Positions 51,214-64,000 of a stretch of 64,000 nt of DNA are shown here, one piece after another; the stretch's first letter is position 1; every line of letters starts with the position of its first letter. A program made the translations under genes and the position numbers. The stretch comes from Halorussus gelatinilyticus (GTDB lineage Archaea; Halobacteriota; Halobacteria; Halobacteriales; Haladaptataceae): contig NZ_CP096658.1 of the NCBI RefSeq assembly GCF_023238445.1, positions 496,001-560,000 of the forward strand, in the 5' to 3' direction. The notes under the pieces were generated by a model that searched no databases, had not been told where the DNA came from, and saw only the letters and a program-made list of their open reading frames with translations.

Positions 51214-51807
51214 ATGCCAGACCGAAACCAAGTACCGCTAAACGTCCGCGTCACTCCCAAGAAAAAAGAGGAGTGGAAAACCTCGATCGATAACGACGAA
51301 ACTCTTGCAGGAGTCGTCCGTCGCGCAGTGGATCGGGAACTCAATAACGAGTACGTCCACGTGGACGCTGCTGACTATTTGGATGGTGGCGACGATATCG
51401 ATTTTAGCGAGGTGACTACCGATCTCGATTCACTCTCTGGGCAAGTTGAAGCGCTCCAGAGTGAGCTTGACGATGCGCTCACACCGGGGTCAATGCCACC
51501 GGAAGATCAGTTAAGCGAGGTGGCGATGCAAGCACTCGCGCACATCCCGCGGTATAGTGATCTCTCTGATGACGTGAGACGAGAGATCGGTGAGAGAGAT
51601 ATGGATCGACTACGAGGTGTTAAGATCTCGATTGAGGGTCGGCAAACACGAGTAGACGGGAGTGCGCAAGCAATCGCGTTCAAAATGGACGGTGACGAAA
51701 GCGAACTCATCGTTCGACAGGCCCTCATTTACCTAGAGAACCGGACGACAGAGAACGTCCGGAGTACGATTGCTGACGGGACTCGGAACTGGGTGAGAGG
51801 GGTATGA
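51214..51807 (+). CDS. Putative ribbon-helix-helix-type DNA-binding protein of the integrative element
   Basis: A 197-residue protein beginning with PLNVRVTPKKKEEWKTSIDNDETLAGVVRRAVDREL, which looks like a ribbon-helix-helix (CopG/Arc-type) strand and two helices, followed by an acidic coiled-coil stretch (residues 75-95) and a C-terminal domain of unknown type. Its stop overlaps the recombinase start (ATGA), so the two are translated together; it may regulate excision or act as the recombination directionality factor. GC is clearly lower than in the ribosomal region. Confidence 0.75.
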   Translation: MPDRNQVPLNVRVTPKKKEEWKTSIDNDETLAGVVRRAVDRELNNEYVHVDAADYLDGGDDIDFSEVTTDLDSLSGQVEALQSELDDALTPGSMPPEDQLSEVAMQALAHIPRYSDLSDDVRREIGERDMDRLRGVKISIEGRQTRVDGSAQAIAFKMDGDESELIVRQALIYLENRTTENVRSTIADGTRNWVRGV

Positions 51808-52919
51808 GGGACGACAAAGGCAGGTACGTAACACCAGAAAGCGAGAAGCTCAGCGAGGAGATGGAAGAGTTGCGTGGACGGTATCTCGACTCACTCACGT
51901 CACAGAAAACTGAAACAAGCAAAAGAACACGAACTACTCGGCGAAGGGAAGTCGGGTACTGGCTGCAGTTCTGTAGCGTTAACGGGATTGATCCGCTCGC
52001 CGCCGAAGAGTCCGATGTCCGCGGATATATCCAAACCATCAATGATCACGCAGATACGACGGTTCACTCCTACTTCACGTCAGTCCAATCGTTTTACTCA
52101 ATAATCATAAAAGACGCTGTAGATGACACCCTCGAACTTGATAACACCGGAGAGCACCCCTGCGATGGAATCAGCCTCAAGAAAGATTATGAAATCAGCA
52201 GGACATCGGAGTACAAACGACAGCATGTAATTACAGACGACCTTGAAAACGCCCGAGAGAACGAAGACGTCATCGCCCTCCGTCCGGACGCGGTTAAAGA
52301 GTTGTTTGACGCTGTGCCCGGAAAACGACGTGAAACTCAACTTCGGAACGAGGTGATTGTCCGTCTTTCATGGTATACCGGTGCTCGAAGCATTGAGCTG
52401 TCGAATATGCGGATTGGGAAAATTGACTGGGAGCGGTGTATGATAAACATCGAGTCCGCTAAAATAGATCCTCGGGAAAATCCCGGACTCGCCCGCCGGA
52501 ACGTTGTGTTTCCGAAAGAGTTCAAGTTGACACTCAGGCGGTGGTGTGAGCGAGTTCGACATTCCTTTTCAGGACAGGTCACACCGGAGGAGGGACACAT
52601 CCTCTGTACGACGCATAGTGACGTGATGCAGCCAGCGGATATCAACGACGTCATTAAACAAACTGCCCGGAACGCTGGGCTCCAACGGCCGCTGCGACCC
52701 GCGGATCCAGATTCGGAAGATGATGTCAAAGAGTGGTTCGTTACGTCACATCGCCTTCGCCGATCAGCGATTAGCCATTGGGTTAACGACATCAACACTA
52801 TCGATATCAACCAAGCTAGAATCTTAGCAGGCCACGCCCAACTCTCACAGACAATTGACTATGTCGAAGACGATAACGATTCACTCGCAGAAGATTACCA
52901 GGAAGGGGTGCAGGGGTAA
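51804..52919 (+). CDS. Tyrosine recombinase / phage-type integrase
   Basis: The 371-residue protein has a SAM-like N-terminal core-binding domain (about residues 40-110: VGYWLQFCSVNGIDPL, TVHSYFTSVQSFYSIII) and a catalytic domain with Arg in YTGARSIELSNM, HRLRR (His and Arg), GHAQLSQT and the nucleophile Tyr in TIDYVEDD. This completes the R-H-R-H-Y set. It should integrate and excise the element that begins after secY. Followed by 344 bp without a gene. Confidence 0.93.
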   Translation: MRDDKGRYVTPESEKLSEEMEELRGRYLDSLTSQKTETSKRTRTTRRREVGYWLQFCSVNGIDPLAAEESDVRGYIQTINDHADTTVHSYFTSVQSFYSIIIKDAVDDTLELDNTGEHPCDGISLKKDYEISRTSEYKRQHVITDDLENARENEDVIALRPDAVKELFDAVPGKRRETQLRNEVIVRLSWYTGARSIELSNMRIGKIDWERCMINIESAKIDPRENPGLARRNVVFPKEFKLTLRRWCERVRHSFSGQVTPEEGHILCTTHSDVMQPADINDVIKQTARNAGLQRPLRPADPDSEDDVKEWFVTSHRLRRSAISHWVNDINTIDINQARILAGHAQLSQTIDYVEDDNDSLAEDYQEGVQG

Positions 52920-53263
52920 CGTTATCGATACCCCGTCGGGTTTCCATCCAACAGTATCAAAAACACACCCCCTCATCGAAATTATCACCGGCCTCCAGTT
53001 CACTGTCGTTCTTGACCAGCCTCGCTTCAGCCAAAGCAAGGCGGCTCAACCGGGCACCTGTTCGTATCCTGCTGACATCCCGTCCCGTTTGTCCGATGCT
53101 TCCTCTTCCAGCCAAGTTCCTCTCCAACATCTGCTGGATCCTATGGAGAACGCATCACCGAGCGTGAACACCACTAGAAAGCTGGCAGCACTACACTACT
53201 TCGTGAAAGTCACCCAATTACAGGTATTCTCACGCCAGCCGTTGGTGAGTTACCTGGTCCCCA
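52920..53263. other. Gene-free stretch of 344 bp in the element
   Basis: Lies between the convergent recombinase and MCM genes. A 160-codon open frame crosses it but overlaps the coding ends of both neighbours and is Ser/Arg-rich without domain signals, so I do not call it. GC is about 52 percent, lower than the core. It may hold remnants of lost genes. Confidence 0.5.
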
Positions 53264-55303
53264 CTACGATTTCCGCAGTTTGCCTCTTGTCTCGTAGATC
53301 TTGCCGTTCTGTTTCAGCGAGTCGATGTCATGCCTAATCTTCTCCTCATCCATGTCGATGATCTCCGCGACCTCTTCGGCGGTCGTCCCGTCTTGGTCCT
53401 CAATGATGGCAAGCACCTGTTTTCGCCGGTCCCGCTGGCTCTTCGACTGCCCCGTCTCAACTACGTCCACATCGAACTGCCCGCTCTCGGGGTCGATGCC
53501 GACCTGCTCCATCGACTTCCGAACCAGCGTGAGGGCACGGTCCACGTCCTCTCGCCGAACTTCGTCGGAGAGACGCACCCGTGCAGACGCCTCAGCGAGG
53601 CGTTCGATGGCTTCTTCTTGTCGGTAGGTCACCGGCACTGGGTTGTCTTCTTCGTCGGCGTTGGCGAGACGGATCTTCAGGAATTCCTCACGGAGGTACT
53701 CTTGGGTCTCCTCATTCTCTGCCCGGATGTACGGCGTCACCTCGTCCTTCGCATAGGCGATGTACGCACGCAGCGTCTGGTGGGGGATATCCGGCTCGAT
53801 GCTTTTCCGCTCTTCCTCGGTGAGCTCCTTGCCGAGCTCCTTTTTTGCCTTCGCCCGCCGGGACCGCATCTGGTGGTTGACGACTCCTCGGTCAGTCTCC
53901 TTGTCGGGCGAGTCGGAGACCATGAACATCAGATCGAACCGCGACATCAGTGTCGGTCCGAGGTCAAGTTGTTCGGCAATCGGCTCGTAGTTATCGAACC
54001 GTCCGTATTTTGGGTTTCCCGCCGCTAGCATTGCGGTGCGCGCGTTCAGTGTCGCGTTGATTCCTGCTTTGTTTACCCGGACTTTCTGACTCTCTAGGGC
54101 GTCGTGGAGAGATGAAATGACGTTGTCGTTGACCTTATCGATCTCGTCGATACACGCGACGCCGCCGTCAGCGAGGACGAGAGCACCTGCTTCGAGGCCC
54201 CATTCGGCGTCGCCGAAGTCGTCGGCTACCGCCGCCGCGGTTAACCCTGCAGCCGTGGCTCCCTTTCCTGAGGCGTACGTTGAGCGCGGCGCGAGGTCAT
54301 TGGCTGCCTTCAGGAAGGTCGATTTTCCGCAGCCAGGGTCACCCATCAGGAGAAGGTGGGAGTCCCCGCGCGTCTGCCCGCCGCGGGACCACCCGCCGAA
54401 CAGTTGGAGCGCGATGGCGAGTTTCACAACCTCGTGTCCTTCGTGTCCCGGGTTGATCGATTGAACTAGCAGGTCGTACGGGTCACCATGCTCGCCGGCG
54501 GCAATGGCCTCTATCTCGTCTCGGTGTTCGGAGATGTCGATGTCGTCGTAGGAACTCTCCTCTCGGACGACTGCCTGCCCGTCTACGGTGGTGTCGAAGT
54601 CAAGCGACTGGTTACTCCCAGGTTCCTCGGTGTCGAGAATACCGGTGAGGGTGACGCGATCACCGGCGTCGAACGACTGAATGAGGTCGTCTTCAAGATG
54701 GACGTCGATGGTCTCGCCCTCACCACCTTTCGTGCGCTCGGGCGGCTGCTGAATCCGAGCGAACTGGTGGTCGGTCCACGTGCTGGCCGACGAGTCGGGA
54801 CGGAATGGACCCTGTCGTTCGCATCCCTGACACTCGTGCGGTTCATCAAGTTGGTCACCGGTCTGCAGGATATCCGTCTGGGTTCCGCAGCGCTGGCATT
54901 CGAAGGTGGCTTCGACGATGCGTGGCTTCACCGCGCTGACCTTCTGGACCTGGCCGCGAATCCCTAGCAGCTTCCCGATGTTCTCCTTACGTGGAACTTC
55001 CGCGACGTCGAGGACGATGTCGTCTGGTAGGTCGTGGATGCGGACGTGAGCGTCGGATAGACTGACGTCCACGGGCAGGTCGTACAGTCGAAGCGCCTCT
55101 TCGAAGTACTCCAGCATCTCTCGCGGATGCTCTTGGATGTCGTCCGCGAGATCGGGGTCGAATCGGAAGACGTCATCGTAGCGTACGTGGAGTGAGCGTT
55201 GCTCTTGCGGGTAGTGCTGAGCGAGCTGTGCGACTTCCTCCCGGTAGTAGTCCCGGAGGAATCCTATCAAACGTTCGGTGATATCTTGGTGTTCTGCTCT
55301 CAT
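53264..55303 (-). CDS. mcm: MCM replicative-type DNA helicase on a mobile element
   Basis: The protein (679 residues from ATG 55303; 686 from ATG 55324) has the whole archaeal MCM layout: N-terminal domain A, a zinc finger (FECQRCGTQTD ... HECQGC), OB fold, Walker A LMGDPGCGKSTFLKA, Walker B GGVACIDEIDKV, Arg finger LMSRFDLMF and a C-terminal winged helix (TTAEEVAEIIDMDEEKIRHDIDSLKQNG). I prefer 55303 because the core-genome MCM family begins close to the first helix. No intein is visible at the Walker A site. An element-borne MCM next to an integrase is a known haloarchaeal theme: self-replication or recruitment by the element. Confidence 0.95.
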   Translation of the reverse strand: MRAEHQDITERLIGFLRDYYREEVAQLAQHYPQEQRSLHVRYDDVFRFDPDLADDIQEHPREMLEYFEEALRLYDLPVDVSLSDAHVRIHDLPDDIVLDVAEVPRKENIGKLLGIRGQVQKVSAVKPRIVEATFECQRCGTQTDILQTGDQLDEPHECQGCERQGPFRPDSSASTWTDHQFARIQQPPERTKGGEGETIDVHLEDDLIQSFDAGDRVTLTGILDTEEPGSNQSLDFDTTVDGQAVVREESSYDDIDISEHRDEIEAIAAGEHGDPYDLLVQSINPGHEGHEVVKLAIALQLFGGWSRGGQTRGDSHLLLMGDPGCGKSTFLKAANDLAPRSTYASGKGATAAGLTAAAVADDFGDAEWGLEAGALVLADGGVACIDEIDKVNDNVISSLHDALESQKVRVNKAGINATLNARTAMLAAGNPKYGRFDNYEPIAEQLDLGPTLMSRFDLMFMVSDSPDKETDRGVVNHQMRSRRAKAKKELGKELTEEERKSIEPDIPHQTLRAYIAYAKDEVTPYIRAENEETQEYLREEFLKIRLANADEEDNPVPVTYRQEEAIERLAEASARVRLSDEVRREDVDRALTLVRKSMEQVGIDPESGQFDVDVVETGQSKSQRDRRKQVLAIIEDQDGTTAEEVAEIIDMDEEKIRHDIDSLKQNGKIYETRGKLRKS

Positions 55304-55517
55304 ATCGATTTGTTGGAGCTCCACAACACCCTTGCCGGCGTGTGGTTCCCGGACCGGAGCGAGCGGAGCGAGCGGTCAGCGAGCATACCATCAGCTAACC
55401 GACCTTTATTTACAACTGCCTCTACCGTACAACCACTACGGCCTCAGAGGGAATCGTCTGAGACCAACCCCGTCGGCGGGGGCTTCCCACCTCCGAGGTG
55501 TTGTGGGGCTCCCACAG

Positions 55518-56449: not shown

Positions 56450-57085
56450 ATGGAGCTTTCAGATACTGACTGGGGGATCCTCAACCTCTGCAGCGACAAC
56501 CGCGAAACGCGCAAAAACATCGCCGCTGCTTTGGACAAGTCACCCAACTACATCTCGAAAGAACTCTCGAAGCTCAGCGAGATGGGACTTCTCAAACAAC
56601 CAGGTCCAGCCGAGAACTCCGGGATGCACGTCACGACGAAGAAAGGAGAATTTGTCCTTTCGAAACAGGAAAAATACGAACGCCGGCAGTCCGAACTGTT
56701 CGGGGAGCTTGTCAAGTCGGCTGCCGAACTGTCTTGTGAATTATCAGCAGAAGCCGACAAGGAAGTTACTCCGAGCGATATCGTGGTCGTGACCGAACAG
56801 GCGCATGACTTACTTCAGAAACTGGATAACAACAGCGGGATATCCCCACAAGAAGCGGCAGATCGAATTGGGATAAATCTCTACGCGACACAGGGAATCT
56901 TATACGAACTATATTTTTTCGATCTTCTGGATCAAGCAGTCACATCTGAGGGAGAAATCTATGATCTCACCGCCCGTGGTCGGCGACTTCTTGATCAGCC
57001 CGCTCAGACAACTGTGAAGGATGCGAATCGTACGTGGAACATAATTACGTCGAAAGACAAATCCGAACCATCCTTTGATAAGTGA
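56450..57085 (+). CDS. Two-domain winged-helix transcription regulator
   Basis: A 211-residue protein. Residues 1-65 form a winged helix (DWGILNLCSDNRETRKNIAAALDKSPNYISKELSKLSEMGLLKQPG pattern), a helical middle with a coiled-coil-like stretch follows (74-105), and a second winged helix is at about 127-190 (ISPQEAADRIGINLYATQGILYELYFFDLLDQ). It probably regulates element or neighbouring defence genes. The gene is AT-rich. No specific family was identified. Confidence 0.78.
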   Translation: MELSDTDWGILNLCSDNRETRKNIAAALDKSPNYISKELSKLSEMGLLKQPGPAENSGMHVTTKKGEFVLSKQEKYERRQSELFGELVKSAAELSCELSAEADKEVTPSDIVVVTEQAHDLLQKLDNNSGISPQEAADRIGINLYATQGILYELYFFDLLDQAVTSEGEIYDLTARGRRLLDQPAQTTVKDANRTWNIITSKDKSEPSFDK

Positions 57086-57358: not shown

Positions 57359-58525
57359 CTAGTTGTTAGAAGAACTGCAGGATCTACATCGAATTGAGCC
57401 TTTGATCGTATTCAGGGGGTTCTCTACGCTCAATACACTATCACACGATGAACACTGGACTGTTTCCGTAGTTCCGATCCCACTTCCATATCCGAGCGTC
57501 ACGGTTCGGGAAACTCCTTGCTCAGCCAGTTCGACATCGATCTCTCCCCGTTCGTACTCTACCTGTGTTACCGTCAGAGGAGTCACTCGAATATCCAGCG
57601 CATGCCGCTTCCGAATCTCTTCCTGTTTCTGGGGAAATCCCTGATCGCGCAGTTCCTGCAGAGCACTTAGTTCCGCATCCACCTCTTCATACTCAGCTTT
57701 TGCCTCTTTCCGTTTCTTCAGTGCCTCCACGCGATCGTCCTGATTACTGCCGTTGATCGTTTCACTCAGCTCATCGATCTTCGAGGACAGCTTGGAACGT
57801 TCCTCTTCCAACTCTTGGATCCGTTGTTGTTGCAGTTGCCGGTACTCTTCGACCTCTGCGTCCGCTGCTCTCGATGCCTCATTATGGACCTCATCAATTT
57901 TGTTCTGGATGCTCTGCATCAGCTGATCTTGGGCTGTGCCGAGAAGCGATCGTGCGTCTGATCCCGATAATGAGGACTCCGTGGTAGTGGGAGAACCGTT
58001 CGTGGGTATCGACGTCATTTGAAGAAACGTCTCCTCTAACGCCGGAAGTCTCTGTTCCGAGCGGTGGTCGATGGCGATGGCGCGAAGGAGCTCTTGTTGG
58101 TACTCACTGACGGTTTCGATACTCACCTCGAAGAGAACTACAATCGCTGTGCGGTCGTAATACGGAGTGAACTGGGCCTCCCTGACTTCGACGTCACCTT
58201 CTTTGATCCACTGTGGGATTTCCGCGTCGTCCCGATCGGCTTCTATCGATAGTTTCCCAGTAGGGTGGCGCTCAGTTGCCTCTCTGAGGATCCGCTGAAA
58301 GAACTCACTCTCGGGATGAAGAGACTCTTCAGTAGCATCTTCGTCTCTGTCTGCGCCACAAAGCAACGATAGGCTTCCCGCCGGCAATTCCGTATCCTCA
58401 TTGTCTGGGATCGTAACTTCCCAGGTATCCCCTCGTTTCTCGATGGTCCCACCGAGTGACTCTAAGTAGCGTTCGGCGAAGTCCTCAACGAGGGACTGCG
58501 TGACCGCGAGTGCTTCGTCAGTCAT
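57359..58525 (-). CDS. Coiled-coil protein with C-terminal zinc ribbon, partner of SNF2 helicase
   Basis: A 388-residue protein. N-terminal domain about 1-190 (ESLGGTIEKRGDTWEVTIPDNED, YYDRTAIVVLFEVSIETVSEYQQELLRAIAID), long coiled coil about 200-300 (EVEEYRQLQQQRIQELEEERSKLSSKIDEL), a beta domain (RVTPLTVTQVEYERGEIDVELA) and a final ribbon with VQCSSCDSVLSV and RCRSCSSSNN (two CxxC). The start at 58525 overlaps the SNF2 gene by 8 bp, so the two proteins are made together. I do not recognise the family. The open frame upstream of 58525 is not coding. Confidence 0.8.
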   Translation of the reverse strand: MTDEALAVTQSLVEDFAERYLESLGGTIEKRGDTWEVTIPDNEDTELPAGSLSLLCGADRDEDATEESLHPESEFFQRILREATERHPTGKLSIEADRDDAEIPQWIKEGDVEVREAQFTPYYDRTAIVVLFEVSIETVSEYQQELLRAIAIDHRSEQRLPALEETFLQMTSIPTNGSPTTTESSLSGSDARSLLGTAQDQLMQSIQNKIDEVHNEASRAADAEVEEYRQLQQQRIQELEEERSKLSSKIDELSETINGSNQDDRVEALKKRKEAKAEYEEVDAELSALQELRDQGFPQKQEEIRKRHALDIRVTPLTVTQVEYERGEIDVELAEQGVSRTVTLGYGSGIGTTETVQCSSCDSVLSVENPLNTIKGSIRCRSCSSSNN

Positions 58526-60272
58526 CGCCTTCCCCCAAGTCGAATCCTTCGAAGACGCCGTTGTTGAACTGCTCCAGTTTGTCAGCGAGCTCGCTCTGTT
58601 CTTGCAGATCGACGGCCATCGCTTCGAAGTCGTTCTCCAGATCAACCTCTGAATCAGCATTGACGAGTCGGTCGAAAATCTGGTCCTCGAAGCTTGTCCC
58701 TGACTCTTCTAACCGACTCAAGATCGAACTTAGCTCGCCCACACTTTGTTGGAACAAATCGATTTTGTGGTAGAGACGCTCCAGTACGTATTCTTCAACA
58801 GTATCCTTTAGCGCCATGTTGAAGATGAAGACATCCCGTTTCTGTCCAATCCGGTGTACACGTCCAATACGTTGTTCGACGCGCATCGGATTCCACGGCA
58901 AGTCTAAATTAACCAACATATTACAAAACTGTAAGTTTCGACCTTCGCTCATTGAGTCGGTTGAAACGAGGACCCCACCCTCCTCCTCGAAGTCCTCAAT
59001 AATCAGTTCCTTCTCGCTACTGGAGTGGCCACCGTGGAACGCGTGTACCGTGTACCCCTCCGCAGCGAGCCTATCGAGAATCTCCTGTTGAGTTGCTCGG
59101 AACTGCGTGAAGACGATGACTCGCCCCATCTCGACGTTGTCACGGGCTTCTTCGACAATGTCCAGAAGTCGTTCCTGTTTGGTGACCGTATCGATCTCAT
59201 CGATCAGATCTAAAATGGACTCCAGTTCGTCCGCGTGCGTGAGCTCCGACTGGTCGTAGAGTCGCTTCTCGATGGTCTTCTTGAGTGCGACCGGGCTGCT
59301 GACGACCTCCTTCTGCAAGAGCATCAGTACGAGCTTCTGCCCCTGGTCTTGGCTGTAGGCACCTTTCACATAGTCAGAAACCGCCTGATAGAGTTCGCGT
59401 TCCTTCGGGGTTGGATTGAACGTCCGTGTGTCGATCGTCCGGTCCGTGAAGTCAATATCCGTGTCCTCCCGTCGGTTTCGGATCATAACCTTGTTTAGGC
59501 GGTCCTGTAGTTCGTCTCGATTCACCAGCGTCTCTTGATTGCTGTTGACGAAGTACTGGTGGAAGACGTCGCGTGTGCCGAACAGTCCGGGTCGAAGTAG
59601 CGAGACGACGTTGTAGAGGTCGGTCAGCTCGTTCTGAATCGGCGTCGCCGTCAGGAAGAACGCGTAGTTGTAGGAGAGCCGGTCAATCAGGTCGTAACGG
59701 TCCGTCTCCTCGTTTTTGACGTAGTGGGCTTCGTCGAGGACCAGAACGTCCCAGTCGCGGTTGAGGACAGTCTGACGGTGTCGCTCGCTCTTCGCAGTGT
59801 CGATACTTGCGATGATGTAGTCGTGGGCGTCGAAGTCTTCGAACTCGTCGTCGTAGTTGCAGACGAAGTTGAGCCCGAACTTCTCACGGAGTTCGGCCTG
59901 CCACTGTTTCGCCAGTTGTGCAGGAGTGAGGATGAGGACGGACTCGTCCGTCTCTCGGAAGTGCATCTCCTTGAGAATCATCCCGACCTCGATGGTCTTT
60001 CCGAGGCCGACTTCGTCCGCGAGAAGGGCTTTCCCGTCCATCTCGAAGAGGGCCCGATAGGCGGCGTCCACCTGATGTTCGAGTAGCTTGACGGAGTTTT
60101 CGTCTAGTTCTTTCAGCGACCGAAGTTCGGAGTCCGGCTGGCCCGCCTGGAGACGAACGGCTTGGATGGTTTGTAAATGATCCTCCTCTGCACCATCTCC
60201 AGACAACGAATCGGGAATATCGTCCGCAGACTCGTGTGTGACCTCAACATCAACGAGGTCGTAGCTTCCCAT
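58518..60272 (-). CDS. SNF2/HepA-type superfamily 2 helicase
   Basis: The 584-residue protein has the SNF2 motor: Walker A LLADEVGLGKTIEVGMIL, motif Ia LILTPAQLAKQW, DEAH-box VLVLDEAHYVKNEETDRY, LTATPIQNELTDLYN, and in lobe 2 VIVFTQFRATQQEIL, LVSTDSMSEGRNLQF and the RIGRVHRIGQ motif VI. No nuclease or methylase domain is fused. ATG 60272 is the family-like start (MGSYDLVDVEVTH). It is divergent from the DUF499 ATPase, start codons 142 bp apart, implying shared control. Confidence 0.92.
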   Translation of the reverse strand: MGSYDLVDVEVTHESADDIPDSLSGDGAEEDHLQTIQAVRLQAGQPDSELRSLKELDENSVKLLEHQVDAAYRALFEMDGKALLADEVGLGKTIEVGMILKEMHFRETDESVLILTPAQLAKQWQAELREKFGLNFVCNYDDEFEDFDAHDYIIASIDTAKSERHRQTVLNRDWDVLVLDEAHYVKNEETDRYDLIDRLSYNYAFFLTATPIQNELTDLYNVVSLLRPGLFGTRDVFHQYFVNSNQETLVNRDELQDRLNKVMIRNRREDTDIDFTDRTIDTRTFNPTPKERELYQAVSDYVKGAYSQDQGQKLVLMLLQKEVVSSPVALKKTIEKRLYDQSELTHADELESILDLIDEIDTVTKQERLLDIVEEARDNVEMGRVIVFTQFRATQQEILDRLAAEGYTVHAFHGGHSSSEKELIIEDFEEEGGVLVSTDSMSEGRNLQFCNMLVNLDLPWNPMRVEQRIGRVHRIGQKRDVFIFNMALKDTVEEYVLERLYHKIDLFQQSVGELSSILSRLEESGTSFEDQIFDRLVNADSEVDLENDFEAMAVDLQEQSELADKLEQFNNGVFEGFDLGEGDD

Positions 60273-60414
60273 AGTTTCGTAGAGACAGGTTCGCGTCAAA
60301 TACGTTTGGTGACCGGAAAACACTGGACGGTCCGTCTGCTTGGCTCCGAGGGAGGAGGTATTCGCAAGACCATAGTGTTTATTGGGTGGCCAAGAGGTGT
60401 GTTTAAGTATCAAG

Positions 60415-63400
60415 ATGGCACAGTCAGGATCCCTGTCGAATACCCTCGAAGACACGGTGACCCTCAGTCGTGAGCTTCGAGAAGAGGGGCAAATTGACGG
60501 TCAGGTAAAGCTCTACAACGTCGATGACGATGAGGAGTTCGAGTCAGACGCGGAACTCTTCTTCGAGCGAACCCTGATGACCCAGGGGCTCCGTGAGGCG
60601 CTTTCGATTCTCCGCGATTCGCTCACGGGCGATGACCCGCGCGGGACGCACATCCTCTACGGTCCGTACGGCAGTGGGAAGTCCCACCAGATGGTGGCGC
60701 TGTACCACTGCTTCGACGACCCCGACGCAGCAGGTACGTGGGCAAGCGACTCGGTCGAAGGGTTCGAGACGGCCCTCCCGGAATCAGCGACGCCGATTAC
60801 GGTCGCCATGCAGAACGAGCAGTACGAGTACCTCTGGGAGCCGTTCTTCGAAGCGCTTGATTACGACCCTGGAACGTACAGCTCGGGCGGATATCCCGAC
60901 ATGCAGACGATTCAGGAGGCCGTCGGCGACGACACGGTCGCGTTCTTCGTGGACGAACTCGAAGACTGGTTCGACACACTCCAGGGCGACCGCAAGAGCG
61001 CAAACAAAGCCTTCCTCCAGTCGCTCCTCGAATCGACCGCGCTCTCGGATCTCGAACTATACACCATCGTCTCCGTCCTGCGTGAGGGCTCCGAGGTCCA
61101 CGACATCCTGAATCGGGAACAGGCGGTCGAGGTCAACATGAACAATCAAGTGGACAAACGCGAGGTCCTGCGTCACCGCCTGATCGATTCGGTTAACGAG
61201 AACGCTGCCCGGGAGATCGTCAATGGGTACTTCGATGCCTACGACCAATCAGATCACGTCTCCATTCCCGATGATCTGCTGTCGGAGATGCACGATCTGT
61301 ATCCGTTCCACCCTGTGCTTCTGGACGCGCTTGAGACGCGGTACTACGCTGACGAGGATAACCAGAACACGCGAGGGATGATCTACCTCTTCTCGAAGGT
61401 TCTCCTGGAGATGCAGGATCAGACGGATCTGATCACGCACGGTGATATCGATGCTATCGAGTTCGAGGACGAGTTGGCGAAGATCAACTACGAGCGACTG
61501 AACGCGGCGACGGGCGACATCAAAAGCCGCATCGATGAAGACGATGTTCCCCACGGCCGACGTATTCTGAACACGATCCTCCTGTACTCGCTGAAGCCGA
61601 GCGAGGGCGAGGGTGCAGAGGTTTCGGAGATCGTCATGGGTGCCTACCAGACTGGCGATCTCGTCTCCGACGTTGTCCTCAATCTCGAACGTCTCCACGG
61701 TGTCGCGTGGCATCTCCACAAGCTGAACGGGAAGTACGCGATCCGCGACCGGCAGAACCCGAACGCGCTCATCCGGAACGCGGCCGTGGACGTCTCCGAG
61801 ACGTCGGCGAAGGCTGAAGTCGCGGACTTCATCACCGATATCTTCGGGTCGAACGCACACCCGGTCGGATTCCGGACGAACGATATGCGGGACATCCCAG
61901 ACGACCGCGAGGTCAAGGTCGTCGTGAAGGACGACCAGTGGACGAACGAGGAGGTCGAGAAGGTCATCACGAACGACGGTCGTGGCCGCGAGTGGCGTAA
62001 CACGCTCGTGTTCGTCCAACCCTCGGGCGACAAAGCCATCGAGTCGGGGACACGGTATATCGACAAAGCACGGTACATCGAGGGCGCACGGCAGGTCCTC
62101 GCCGACGAATCTCTCGATGACGAAATCCGGACGTCGATCAAGGGTATGCGGGAGCAGGAGGAGAACGAACTCCGCGAAGAACTCCAGCTCCTGTACGGTG
62201 AGGTGCTTGACGGGAACGACCTGCTCAACGACTGGGGACAGATGACGCCGATGGAACTCGACGTCTACGTTCACGACGAGGCAGAGCTGAATGCGTCGAA
62301 CATCGCGGACTCAGCATCTGCTGATCCGTTTGACCTCCAGTCGGACGTCTGGGCTATCGCTGAGGACCTTCTGGAGCGACGCGGAGAAATTTCGGTCGAG
62401 GATATCTACGAGCAGTTCCTCCGCGACCCGGAGCTACCGATCCCCGGCAGTGCGAACGACGTGCTGAATGCGACGGTGAAAGCGCTCTCGGACAAACCGG
62501 TGCTCGCCCGTGACACTGGTGGGTTCCGCGACGATCTCTCCGGCAGTTCGCTGGACACCGTCCTCGTCCAGCAAGACGATGTGGACGTATGGGGCGTCGA
62601 TGACGTCGAACAGGAACTGCGTCAACGGTTCGGGAGCGGAACGACCGCGCTCGATATCGGTGACTTTGAACTGGAGCTCGTCGAAGACGGCGAGATCTGG
62701 ATCGACGGCGACAGTCACGACGTCGTGATGCGGGCCATCGGTCGGCTCGCTCGTGAGGAGCAGTACGTCATTGTCAAAGGGAACGAGATCCTCGATAAAC
62801 CACAGTCCGACGCGACGGTCCGAGACGTCGGCGGCGCGGAGGTCGTCGGTGCGTCGTCCCTCGTAGACCGCATCGAGACGCATATCGACGACGACGGCTA
62901 TGCGAACCTCGACACGATCATCGGCGAAATCCGTGCCGAGGAGTCGGTGTTCCTCCCGCCGGACGAGACCGAGTCCGTCGCCCGCGAGGCGGTCAACGAA
63001 TTCCTCGTAGACGACTACGTCCTGGAAGCCGGCGGTCGGTACCTCGGATCGCTGGGAGACCGTGACCCGACGACGGTAAAGATCGTCCCGACCGTTCCCG
63101 AACGGATCGGCGACCAGATCCTGGAGTACATCGAGGACCTGGACCCGGGTGACCAGTTCACGGTGAACAAGGTCACGGATCGGTTCGACAGCAGTGTTAC
63201 CGAGTACATGGTGCGGACGTACCTGCTGGAGAACATTGGAAAGGACGAAGAACCCGAGTACGTCGTCAACACGACCGGCTCGGAGAAAGCCTCCGACTGG
63301 GTCCCTGGGTACCCGTTCCGGAAGGCAGACACGGAGATTCCCACGTGGCGCTTCGAGTACAACGGCGACGACGTTGCCGCGATGCGGAGCAAGTGGCGGA

Positions 63401-63621
63401 ACAACCACCAGACAGGAAGTGTCGATTACGGCGACGTCACATTCATGTTACCAGACCGGGAGGGTGTTCCCGGCGCTCTTCAGGGGACCGCCGACGTTGA
63501 GCGGACGCAAGTCAGCCTGACGCTGCGATCCGGCCAGGACTACACGAAGGTTCAGGACCTGTTCGAGCGGATGCCCGAGGAGGCGTCAAGCCTGAAGATC
63601 GAGATCACCTTCCAGAAGTAG
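60415..63621 (+). CDS. DUF499 family AAA+ ATPase (COG1483-like), defence-island type
   Basis: A 1068-residue protein. Residues 1-75 precede a clear P-loop GPYGSGKSH (83-91) and a Walker B FFVDELEDW (with Asp180-Glu181), then an ATPase lid-like region (YPFHPVLLDALETRYY) and long C-terminal alpha/beta domains to the end (DVTFMLPDREGVPGALQGTADVERTQVSLTL). This matches the DUF499 family, found next to DUF1156 DNA methylases and SNF2 helicases in prokaryotic defence islands. Function is unproven; probably an ATP-driven sensor or loader on DNA. An alternative Met lies 11 codons upstream (60382) but has no TATA spacing. Confidence 0.85.
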   Translation: MAQSGSLSNTLEDTVTLSRELREEGQIDGQVKLYNVDDDEEFESDAELFFERTLMTQGLREALSILRDSLTGDDPRGTHILYGPYGSGKSHQMVALYHCFDDPDAAGTWASDSVEGFETALPESATPITVAMQNEQYEYLWEPFFEALDYDPGTYSSGGYPDMQTIQEAVGDDTVAFFVDELEDWFDTLQGDRKSANKAFLQSLLESTALSDLELYTIVSVLREGSEVHDILNREQAVEVNMNNQVDKREVLRHRLIDSVNENAAREIVNGYFDAYDQSDHVSIPDDLLSEMHDLYPFHPVLLDALETRYYADEDNQNTRGMIYLFSKVLLEMQDQTDLITHGDIDAIEFEDELAKINYERLNAATGDIKSRIDEDDVPHGRRILNTILLYSLKPSEGEGAEVSEIVMGAYQTGDLVSDVVLNLERLHGVAWHLHKLNGKYAIRDRQNPNALIRNAAVDVSETSAKAEVADFITDIFGSNAHPVGFRTNDMRDIPDDREVKVVVKDDQWTNEEVEKVITNDGRGREWRNTLVFVQPSGDKAIESGTRYIDKARYIEGARQVLADESLDDEIRTSIKGMREQEENELREELQLLYGEVLDGNDLLNDWGQMTPMELDVYVHDEAELNASNIADSASADPFDLQSDVWAIAEDLLERRGEISVEDIYEQFLRDPELPIPGSANDVLNATVKALSDKPVLARDTGGFRDDLSGSSLDTVLVQQDDVDVWGVDDVEQELRQRFGSGTTALDIGDFELELVEDGEIWIDGDSHDVVMRAIGRLAREEQYVIVKGNEILDKPQSDATVRDVGGAEVVGASSLVDRIETHIDDDGYANLDTIIGEIRAEESVFLPPDETESVAREAVNEFLVDDYVLEAGGRYLGSLGDRDPTTVKIVPTVPERIGDQILEYIEDLDPGDQFTVNKVTDRFDSSVTEYMVRTYLLENIGKDEEPEYVVNTTGSEKASDWVPGYPFRKADTEIPTWRFEYNGDDVAAMRSKWRNNHQTGSVDYGDVTFMLPDREGVPGALQGTADVERTQVSLTLRSGQDYTKVQDLFERMPEEASSLKIEITFQK

Positions 63622-63928: not shown

Positions 63929-64000
63929 CTATCTGTCCCAGTACTCTGAACCCGGTTCGGGCCAGACCTCACTCGCTTGCTTTGCGAGCCACTCGCCACG
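63929..64000 (-). CDS. C-terminal end of a gene cut by the window edge
   Basis: A 23-codon open end (GEWLAKQASEVWPEPGSEYWDR, then TAG) continues past base 64000 with protein-like composition and helical amphipathic character. It lies 83 bp upstream of the 70-aa gene on the same strand. Identity cannot be told. Confidence 0.4.
   Translation of the reverse strand, partial: RGEWLAKQASEVWPEPGSEYWDR

What the first reader, a model, noticed from the sequence alone, without database searches (positions are those of the whole stretch)
57359..58525. Unrecognised coiled-coil protein with a CxxC-CxxC tail tied to a helicase
A 388-aa protein has an N-terminal compact domain, a long coiled coil and a C-terminal zinc ribbon, and is translationally coupled to the SNF2 gene. 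I recognise no family. Coiled coil plus ribbon would suit a DNA- or protein-bridging factor that recruits or regulates the helicase.
Basis: partly seen in the sequence, partly recalled or inferred. Interest (0 to 1): 0.6.

Follow-up and report, generated by a model that had tools for sequence, protein, structure and literature searches.

The report
Detached arm of a defence helicase
The unrecognised protein next to the helicase gene in this salt-loving archaeon is most likely the helicase's own missing tail, made as a separate protein, inside a predicted anti-virus defence system.

Summary
Window 57359-58525(-) encodes a conserved 388-aa protein with a compact N-domain, a coiled coil and four C-terminal cysteines. 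It overlaps the SNF2 gene by 8 nt.

It is probably not an independent bridging factor. Its N-domain matches the region after the helicase core in one-piece RapA/BrxHII/HmaA-type Swi2/Snf2 helicases: hhalign 97%, score 81, controls at most 20. A model of this domain ranks five RapA entries first (residues 704-798, Z 5.8-7.2). After motif VI, 13 one-piece helicases have 355-559 residues, 17 split ones 102-126. In haloarchaea 78 of 80 split-type SNF2 genes are followed by this gene.

The short form has a DUF499 ATPase and/or DUF1156-type methylase nearby in 27 of 31 loci. So this is a DUF499-centred 'BR'/Hma-type restriction system with its helicase in two chains. A long form adds cysteine-rich repeats and precedes an Mrr-like nuclease gene, with no methylase or DUF499 in the 20 kb held.

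Split cores group together in the tree across haloarchaea, cyanobacteria and one alphaproteobacterium; the root is uncertain. My searches found no description of the split. New variant of a known kind; complex and defence activity are inferred.

The parts
57359..58525 (-). 388-aa arm protein (the finding): detached C-terminal arm of a RapA/BrxHII/HmaA-type Swi2/Snf2 helicase
58010..58525 (-). N-domain (residues 1-172), RapA-like alpha+beta domain (described in the literature as a degenerate nuclease fold); no position basic in 80% of rows, so no PD-(D/E)XK signature
   Evidence: hhalign 97.2%, score 81, for residues 1-195; RapA 704-798, Z up to 7.2, for residues 1-90; conservation
57605..57964 (-). 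coiled-coil hairpin (about residues 188-307)
   Evidence: AlphaFold model
57377..57454 (-). zinc-ribbon-like tail, C358 C361 C380 C383
   Evidence: zinc binding is inferred
58518..58525 (-). 8-nt stop/start overlap between SNF2 and arm genes
58518..60455 (-). SNF2 helicase core; likely start at 60272 (584 aa); ends 107 residues after motif VI, without an arm
60382..63621 (+). DUF499/HmaC-like AAA+ ATPase, divergent to SNF2; likely start near 60415
63929..64000 (-). 3' end of a GmrSD (DUF262) type IV restriction gene that continues beyond the window; the DUF1156/HmaB-like methylase lies further on at genome C1:562623-565298
56450..57085 (+). winged-HTH protein convergent to the arm gene, kept in Haloarchaeobius (L006/L037); relation to the system unknown

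Best explanation
The 388-aa protein is the C-terminal arm of a RapA/BrxHII/HmaA-type Swi2/Snf2 helicase, encoded as its own gene. It is co-translated with the SNF2 core through an 8-nt overlap and most likely docks on it to rebuild in two chains what relatives carry in one: core, degenerate nuclease-fold domain, coiled-coil arm. A zinc-ribbon-like tail is added at the end. Together with the divergent DUF499 ATPase and the DUF1156 methylase it forms a DUF499-centred BREX-related (BR, or 'Hma') restriction system: the methylase marks self DNA, the ATPase assembles on DNA, and the helicase with its arm acts on unmarked invading DNA. Shown here: N-domain homology, gene order, overlap, complementarity of the two chains, linkage. 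Inferred: translational coupling, the physical complex, zinc binding, defence activity, and that the arm is the fast-evolving sensing or partner-contacting subunit.
For: (1) hhalign of the family's N-domain (no coiled coil) against the post-helicase regions of 14 one-piece helicases: 97.2%, E 2.9e-11, score 80.9; full length 98.4%, E 8.8e-15, score 114. Controls: 60 column shuffles of each of two target sets, reversed targets, 17 neighbouring families; best N-domain score 20.2, best full-length score 32.3. Repeated with nine haloarchaeal arms: 96.7%, score 80.1, residues 7-159. (2) AlphaFold model of residues 1-172 alone: the five best VIA-align rows are all RapA, residues 704-798, Z 5.8-7.2, 76-89 aligned; next HODM at 5.7 (tied with the lowest RapA row) and a VRR_NUC nuclease at 4.8. 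(3) One-piece haloarchaeal helicase L085 passes the Pfam RapA_C cut-off in this region (28.6 against 26.8). (4) Complementarity: 102-126 residues after motif VI in 17 of 17 split SNF2 proteins compared, 355-559 in 13 of 13 one-piece ones. (5) 78 of 80 split-type SNF2 genes found in 391 genomes are followed by the arm gene; 0 of 80 arm ORFs also held SNF2. (6) The 17 split SNF2 cores lie on one side of a branch (96/90), including cyanobacterial and Rhodovastum pairs whose second genes match the arm family (hhalign 96.3%, no controls run for this pair). (7) Methylase or DUF499 in 27 of 31 short-form loci.
Against: The coiled-coil half alone hardly exceeds the reversed control (13% against 5%) and the zinc tail matches nothing in one-piece arms, so those parts rest on colinearity. 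Of the target subsets, the N-domain is significant against the eight-row one (96.7%) but not against the five-row one (8.9%; full length there 87%) nor against single RapA or DrmD sequences. Foldseek gives no PDB hit at E<=0.001, the N-domain model is of middling confidence (pLDDT 62), and Z near 7 can occur by chance. No complex could be modelled; I found no phage assay for this form. Four of 31 short-form loci show neither methylase nor DUF499 in the stretch held. The methylase and the DUF499 protein stay far below NCBIfam's antiphage equivalog cut-offs (137 of 1000, 70 of 1200 bits).
Confidence: 0.8

Rival explanations
1. One reading: an independent coiled-coil plus zinc-ribbon bridging factor that recruits or regulates the SNF2 helicase but is not part of it by descent.
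For: Separate gene, no convincing Pfam/NCBIfam/PADLOC match, coiled coil and cysteines present. The zinc tail has no match in the one-piece arms compared.
Against: N-domain homology to the arm of one-piece helicases and complementarity of the two chains.
Confidence: 0.1
2. The arm protein is itself the nuclease of the system, an active PD-(D/E)XK enzyme (VRR-like fold).
For: VRR_NUC row at Z 4.8 among the best fold matches of the N-domain; the published reading of the BrxHII/RapA domain is a degenerate REase; the window helicase has no fused nuclease by Pfam.
Against: At 80% or more of 52 rows only E137, E145 and D153 are acidic and no position is basic in the N-domain; the BrxHII counterpart is described as inactive.
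Confidence: 0.04
3. The SNF2-arm pair is a RapA-like RNA polymerase recycling factor, a housekeeping transcription protein, and the defence neighbours are incidental.
For: Fold and profile match to RapA.
Against: Patchy (70 of 391 genomes at E<=1e-110), found on 15 haloarchaeal plasmid records, linked to methylase and DUF499 and, in the window's genome, to McrBC and GmrSD. Far from RapA in the tree, on a long and therefore unsure branch.
Confidence: 0.05

Closest known systems
BrxHII of type 3 BREX and the helicases of DUF499-centred BR systems (HmaA of Hma), as described in PMC12839542
   Same: Swi2/Snf2 core followed by a degenerate REase-like alpha+beta domain and an alpha+beta domain with two long coiled-coil helices; methylase and DUF499 partners in the BR loci.
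   Different: Here core and arm are two genes; a zinc-ribbon-like tail is added; no fused C-terminal nuclease or N-terminal HKD nuclease by Pfam; no PglZ found in the own genome.
RapA of Escherichia coli (Pfam RapA_C, PF12137)
   Same: Arm domain after the helicase core in the same register (RapA 704-798 by fold, 760-808 by the profile of one-piece arms).
   Different: One chain, tandem Tudor domains, a housekeeping RNA polymerase factor.
DrmD of class 1 DISARM
   Same: Nearest curated SNF2 model for the window helicase by score.
   Different: 279 bits against a cut-off of 950; DrmD is one chain. I did not search for the other DISARM genes.
Split SNF2 pairs on cyanobacterial plasmids (Nostoc, Oscillatoria, Chondrocystis) and Rhodovastum atsumiense
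   Same: Same order: short SNF2 then a 333-385 aa arm-like gene.
   Different: No gene named DUF499 or DUF1156 in the annotated stretches viewed; the cysteine tail is clear only in Rhodovastum.

Membership tests
RapA/BrxHII/HmaA-type helicase arm | Profile similarity of the domain after the helicase core | tested here: met
   hhalign 97.2%, score 81, controls at most 20; not significant against the five-row subset or single sequences
RapA/BrxHII/HmaA-type helicase arm | Fold of the first alpha+beta domain (RapA about 704-798) | tested here: met
   RapA ranks 1-5, Z 5.8-7.2, model residues 1-90; middling model, so moderate strength
RapA/BrxHII/HmaA-type helicase arm | Second alpha+beta domain with coiled-coil insert | tested here: inconclusive
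   Helical hairpin plus strands predicted; colinear in full-length hhalign, not significant alone
RapA/BrxHII/HmaA-type helicase arm | Pfam RapA_C match by sequence | tested here: not met
   No RapA_C row for P0001 at E<=1; the one-piece relative L085 passes
DUF499-centred BR / Hma system | DUF499 ATPase + N6-methylase with DUF1156 + Swi2/Snf2 helicase in one locus | tested here: met
   DUF499 38.5 bits, cut-off 23; DUF1156 31.4, cut-off 24; HmaB 1.8e-32; HmaC 2.1e-18; SNF2. Below NCBIfam's antiphage equivalog cut-offs
DUF499-centred BR / Hma system | One-chain helicase with inactive REase and C-terminal alpha+beta domain | tested here: not met
   Arm is a separate gene; hence filed as a variant
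DUF499-centred BR / Hma system | Antiphage activity | not testable with these tools
BR type 2 | DUF3780 gene and HKD nuclease on the helicase | tested here: inconclusive
   DUF3780 not found, but no control genome rang; no HKD domain in SNF2 by Pfam
BR type 3 / BREX type 3 | PglZ | tested here: not met
   0 in own genome (estimated 96.7% complete); 2 of 14 controls ring
DISARM DrmD | NCBIfam equivalog cut-off | tested here: not met
   279 of 950 and 278 of 610 bits

The most novel reading that the evidence does not exclude
Detaching the arm turned it into an exchangeable sensing subunit. The arm is the fastest-changing of the four proteins (mean identity 0.53, against 0.87 SNF2, 0.86 DUF499, 0.72 methylase), co-varies with the DUF499 ATPase beyond SNF2, and shows mosaic histories. 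In a second lineage the arm gained cysteine-rich arrays and joined a separate Mrr-like nuclease gene, giving an undescribed helicase/arm/nuclease defence system without methylase or DUF499 ATPase nearby.
Probability: 0.3. Interest if true: 0.65.

Novelty: new variant of a known kind. Interest (0 to 1): 0.48.

Why it matters
One-piece BR and type 3 BREX helicases carry an arm whose role is unknown. Nature has cut it off here, so core and arm can be made, swapped and assayed separately, which makes the arm's role directly testable. It also explains a family of several dozen 'hypothetical proteins' next to haloarchaeal helicases, and it means that surveys which score such helicases as lacking an arm may have missed that the arm is next door.

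Tried and rejected
Single-sequence search of the PDB with P0001 gave four weak rows (coiled-coil stretches and a short stretch of an acetyltransferase), no RapA; the profile A1 gave coiled-coil and cysteine-site matches, no RapA. Foldseek and VIA-align with the full model listed mostly coiled-coil hairpins, no RapA among the 50 rows shown. Foldseek with the N-domain model gave no hit at E<=0.001 and no RapA in the 50 rows shown. PADLOC rows of P0001 for JetC, LmuB, DndD and PbeC lie on the coiled coil and were set aside; PDC-S05 (residues 108-156, E 0.0048) was not followed. Among 52 family members, 4 hit a DrmD model and 3 a BrxHII model at E<=0.01; where they hit was not shown, so I do not use it. 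No relatives were confirmed in viral contigs. hhalign of the N-domain against the five-row subset (8.9%) and against single RapA and DrmD sequences was not significant. Co-variation: a first test with 15 loci and a linear fit suggested arm~methylase (partial r 0.32, p 0.0015) but 7 loci did not (-0.02), and with 44 loci and a quadratic fit it vanished (0.05, p 0.29). Arm~DUF499 given SNF2 held (0.56, p 0.006, n=11; 0.36, p 0.009, n=35), yet SNF2 changes slowly, so the arm may simply be the better clock. Active nuclease in the N-domain: rejected for lack of a conserved catalytic set. Paper searches returned no papers.

Full report
What is there. Window 57359-58525 on the minus strand encodes 388 residues. 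The start codon lies 8 nt inside the end of the SNF2 gene (58518-60455). Homologues of the helicase start at about 60272, so the true helicase is probably 584 aa. The AlphaFold model of the full protein (11-row alignment, pLDDT 66.4, pTM 0.44) shows an alpha/beta N-domain, a confident helical hairpin at about 188-307, strands, and a low-confidence cysteine tail. Cysteines are at 56, 358, 361, 380 and 383; 358, 361 and 383 are invariant in 52 homologues. Pfam, NCBIfam and PADLOC have no convincing match: the weak rows lie mostly on the coiled coil.

How common and how linked. Of 391 haloarchaeal genomes 100 have a match at E<=1e-3; the weakest rows cover little more than the coiled coil. A search with the SNF2 protein found 80 places of this clade (E<=1e-110) in 70 of the 391 genomes. 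In 78 of 80 the arm gene follows on the same strand. Of the two exceptions one is a fragment at a contig edge (G214:C9), and the other (G317) has a 96-aa ORF matching arm residues 2-62 in that place. Of 90 arm places that I compared (those down to E 1.6e-7), 11 do not follow a listed SNF2: two at contig starts (G268, G049), six pieces in three genomes that look broken (G068, G284, G192), one beside a truncated SNF2 (L066), one beside a DUF499 gene (L065), and one not examined (G304:C45). In 80 arm ORFs of fetched loci, some genomes counted twice, 58 overlap SNF2 by 8 nt at the aligned start and 11 more by 1 nt (4 nt if the first ATG is used, as in L044-L046); none contains both parts.

What it is. 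One-piece helicases of the RapA/BrxHII/HmaA type continue 355-559 residues after motif VI (13 of 13 compared), while the split-type SNF2 proteins stop after 102-126 (17 of 17 compared). I compared the arm family (52 rows) with the post-helicase regions of 14 one-piece helicases: nine haloarchaeal ones found with PADLOC's HmaA model (L084-L092), two next to BREX-3 PglZ genes (L106, L110), one next to DUF1156 and DUF499 genes (L108), one from a Halobacterium plasmid (L107) and E. coli K-12 RapA. The N-domain (residues 1-195) gives 97.2%, E 2.9e-11, score 80.9, and the full protein 98.4%, E 8.8e-15, score 114 over residues 6-313 (repeated in 57). Controls were 60 column shuffles of each of two target sets, reversed targets and 17 other families from these neighbourhoods: the highest N-domain score was 20.2 and the highest full-length score 32.3. 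A separate comparison with nine haloarchaeal arms gave 96.7%, score 80.1. On the weaker side: with subsets the N-domain gives 96.7% for eight rows but 8.9% for the other five; the coiled-coil half alone (13%) and the tail (under 1%) are not significant, and neither are single RapA or DrmD sequences. The one-piece haloarchaeal helicase L085 passes the Pfam RapA_C cut-off at 756-812, and the profile of such arms meets RapA chains at E 0.0034, residues 760-808, among coiled-coil hits of similar E. The hhalign E-values are for single comparisons, not for a library search.

Fold. A model of residues 1-172 alone (pLDDT 62.4, pTM 0.61) was searched in the PDB. Foldseek gave nothing at E<=0.001. In the VIA-align second look the five top rows are five RapA entries, residues 704-798, Z 5.8-7.2, rmsd 3.2-3.5, 76-89 aligned, model residues 1-90; next come HODM at 5.7, tied with the lowest RapA row, and a VRR_NUC nuclease domain at 4.8. 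Z near 7 is not proof alone, but the place in RapA overlaps the one that sequence profiles point to, and RapA followed by a VRR nuclease is what Rakesh and Krishnan report for BrxHII: a degenerate REase-like domain after the core, then an alpha+beta domain with two coiled-coil helices (PMC12839542; I saw the outline and abstract, sections 27, 29, 30 and 33, and passages). The N-domain keeps no catalytic set: at 80% or more of rows only E137, E145 and D153 are acidic and no position is basic.

Origin. In a maximum-likelihood tree of 30 helicase cores the 17 split-type proteins (short, long and bacterial) lie on one side of a branch with support 96/90; several long branches, RapA above all and Rhodovastum too, make root and joins uncertain. 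The bacterial pairs are on plasmids of Nostoc, Oscillatoria and Chondrocystis and of Rhodovastum atsumiense. An alignment of their four second genes matches the arm family by hhalign at 96.3% over 337 columns, without controls of its own; the N-domain alone reaches 30%, and by hmmsearch only the Nostoc and Oscillatoria proteins hit. So the split looks old and stable, not a recent frameshift.

System. Divergent to SNF2 lies a DUF499 protein (Pfam 38.5 bits, cut-off 23; HmaC 2.1e-18). Beyond the window the genome continues with GmrSD, a DUF1156 methylase (31.4 bits, cut-off 24; HmaB 1.8e-32) and McrBC. DUF499 and methylase stay below NCBIfam's antiphage equivalog cut-offs, so they are divergent members. 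Of 31 short-form loci, 27 have methylase or DUF499 in the stretch held (25 methylase, 15 DUF499); the four without are L037, L066, L071 and L079, and L037 lies at a contig end. In a larger, partly overlapping set of 56 entries, many re-fetched with more upstream sequence, 50 have a methylase match and 39 a DUF499 match. The own genome has no PglZ match. DUF3780 was not found either, but no control rang, so that is open. The locus therefore fits the DUF499-centred BR/Hma systems (PMC12839542; Hma naming in PMC8565338, passages; earlier notes in PMC7641849 and PMC3710099, passages). It departs from them in having the helicase in two chains and no fused nuclease by Pfam. Which nuclease cuts is unknown; GmrSD and McrBC lie nearby here, and UvrD/PD-(D/E)XK gene pairs in some relatives.

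Long form. In 19 loci the arm gene is longer (675-1185 aa), with cysteine-rich repeats after the arm part in the four long ones that I read (L044, L050, L057, L061). None of the 19 has a methylase or DUF499 match in the 20 kb or less held. All 19 have a c3 gene; in 18 it overlaps the end of the arm gene, in L059 it lies 2 kb away. c3 matches Mrr_cat just under the cut-off in L048 (20.7 against 21), and the gene in that place in Haloferax lucentense L109 passes it (27.8). Core, arm, nuclease in adjacent genes repeats the domain order given for type 1 BR helicases. Eleven of 19 also have a neighbouring pair c6/c7, divergent in ten; the one c7 protein scanned is PbeA-like.

Rates. Among 35 non-redundant entries with arm, SNF2 and DUF499, mean identities are 0.53, 0.87 and 0.86, and fourfold-site identities 0.33, 0.42 and 0.49; the methylase has 0.72 in the 34 entries with all four. 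Relative to the window, loci with SNF2 at 94-96% and fourfold identity 0.54-0.56 carry arms at 92% (0.77; L004, L005) or at 59-60% (0.33; L019, L017), which suggests exchange of arm alleles. The arm co-varies with DUF499 given SNF2 (partial r 0.36, p 0.009), SNF2 with DUF499 given the arm does not (-0.03), and the arm does not co-vary with the methylase (0.05, n=44). As SNF2 changes slowly, the first result may only mean that the arm is a finer clock.

Mechanism proposed. Shown: homology of the N-domain to the helicase arm, complementarity of the chains, gene overlap, linkage to methylase and ATPase. Inferred: the arm binds the SNF2 core and restores the RapA/BrxHII architecture; with the DUF499 ATPase it recognises or handles unmarked DNA; the methylase protects the host.

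Novelty. My searches for a description of the split (in PMC12839542 the words 'split', 'fission' and 'separate gene' occur 0 times in the main text) found none. Apart from PMC12839542 and the passages named above (and one passage of PMC12111858), I saw the papers listed as search listings only. PMC12839542 mentions occasional loss of the arm in type 2 BR helicases. Its supplements could not be read. I rate it a new variant of a known kind.

Noticed in passing
L044-L062, for example L050:9003-11030(-), L044:6778-10335(-); L109:8680-12417(+): Long arm proteins carry arrays of cysteine/histidine repeats (B-box-like to the eye, in those read) after the arm part and are followed by an Mrr-like nuclease gene and, in 13 of 19, a 298-aa unknown gene; 11 of 19 have a neighbouring PbeA-like helicase gene with a partner: a possible undescribed defence system.
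   Followed up: partly
window 51804-55324: A phage-type integrase (51804-52919) and an MCM homologue of 686 aa (53264-55324, minus) lie beside the defence genes; the MCM, a 189-aa coiled-coil gene and the winged-HTH gene recur in Haloarchaeobius (L037), which hints at an integrated element.
   Followed up: partly
L002:11376-14404(-), L002:3929-5767(-): McrBC and GmrSD type IV restriction genes lie in the same island; relatives of this McrBC or GmrSD lie beside the short form in 5 and 1 of 31 loci.
   Followed up: partly
L065:5805-10178: An arm protein lacking about 87 N-terminal residues follows a DUF499 gene directly, with no SNF2 match in the locus.
   Followed up: no
L039:11643-14504 with the gene after it, L075:10963 onward, L118:15535-22721: UvrD-helicase plus PD-(D/E)XK gene pairs, AddAB-like, recur next to the short form in some relatives and could be its nuclease.
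   Followed up: no
L109:8680-12417(+) (Haloferax lucentense plasmid): The 1245-aa long arm ORF has no listed gene in the PLSDB table, which shows small genes on the opposite strand there; the table is incomplete, so this may not be an annotation error.
   Followed up: no
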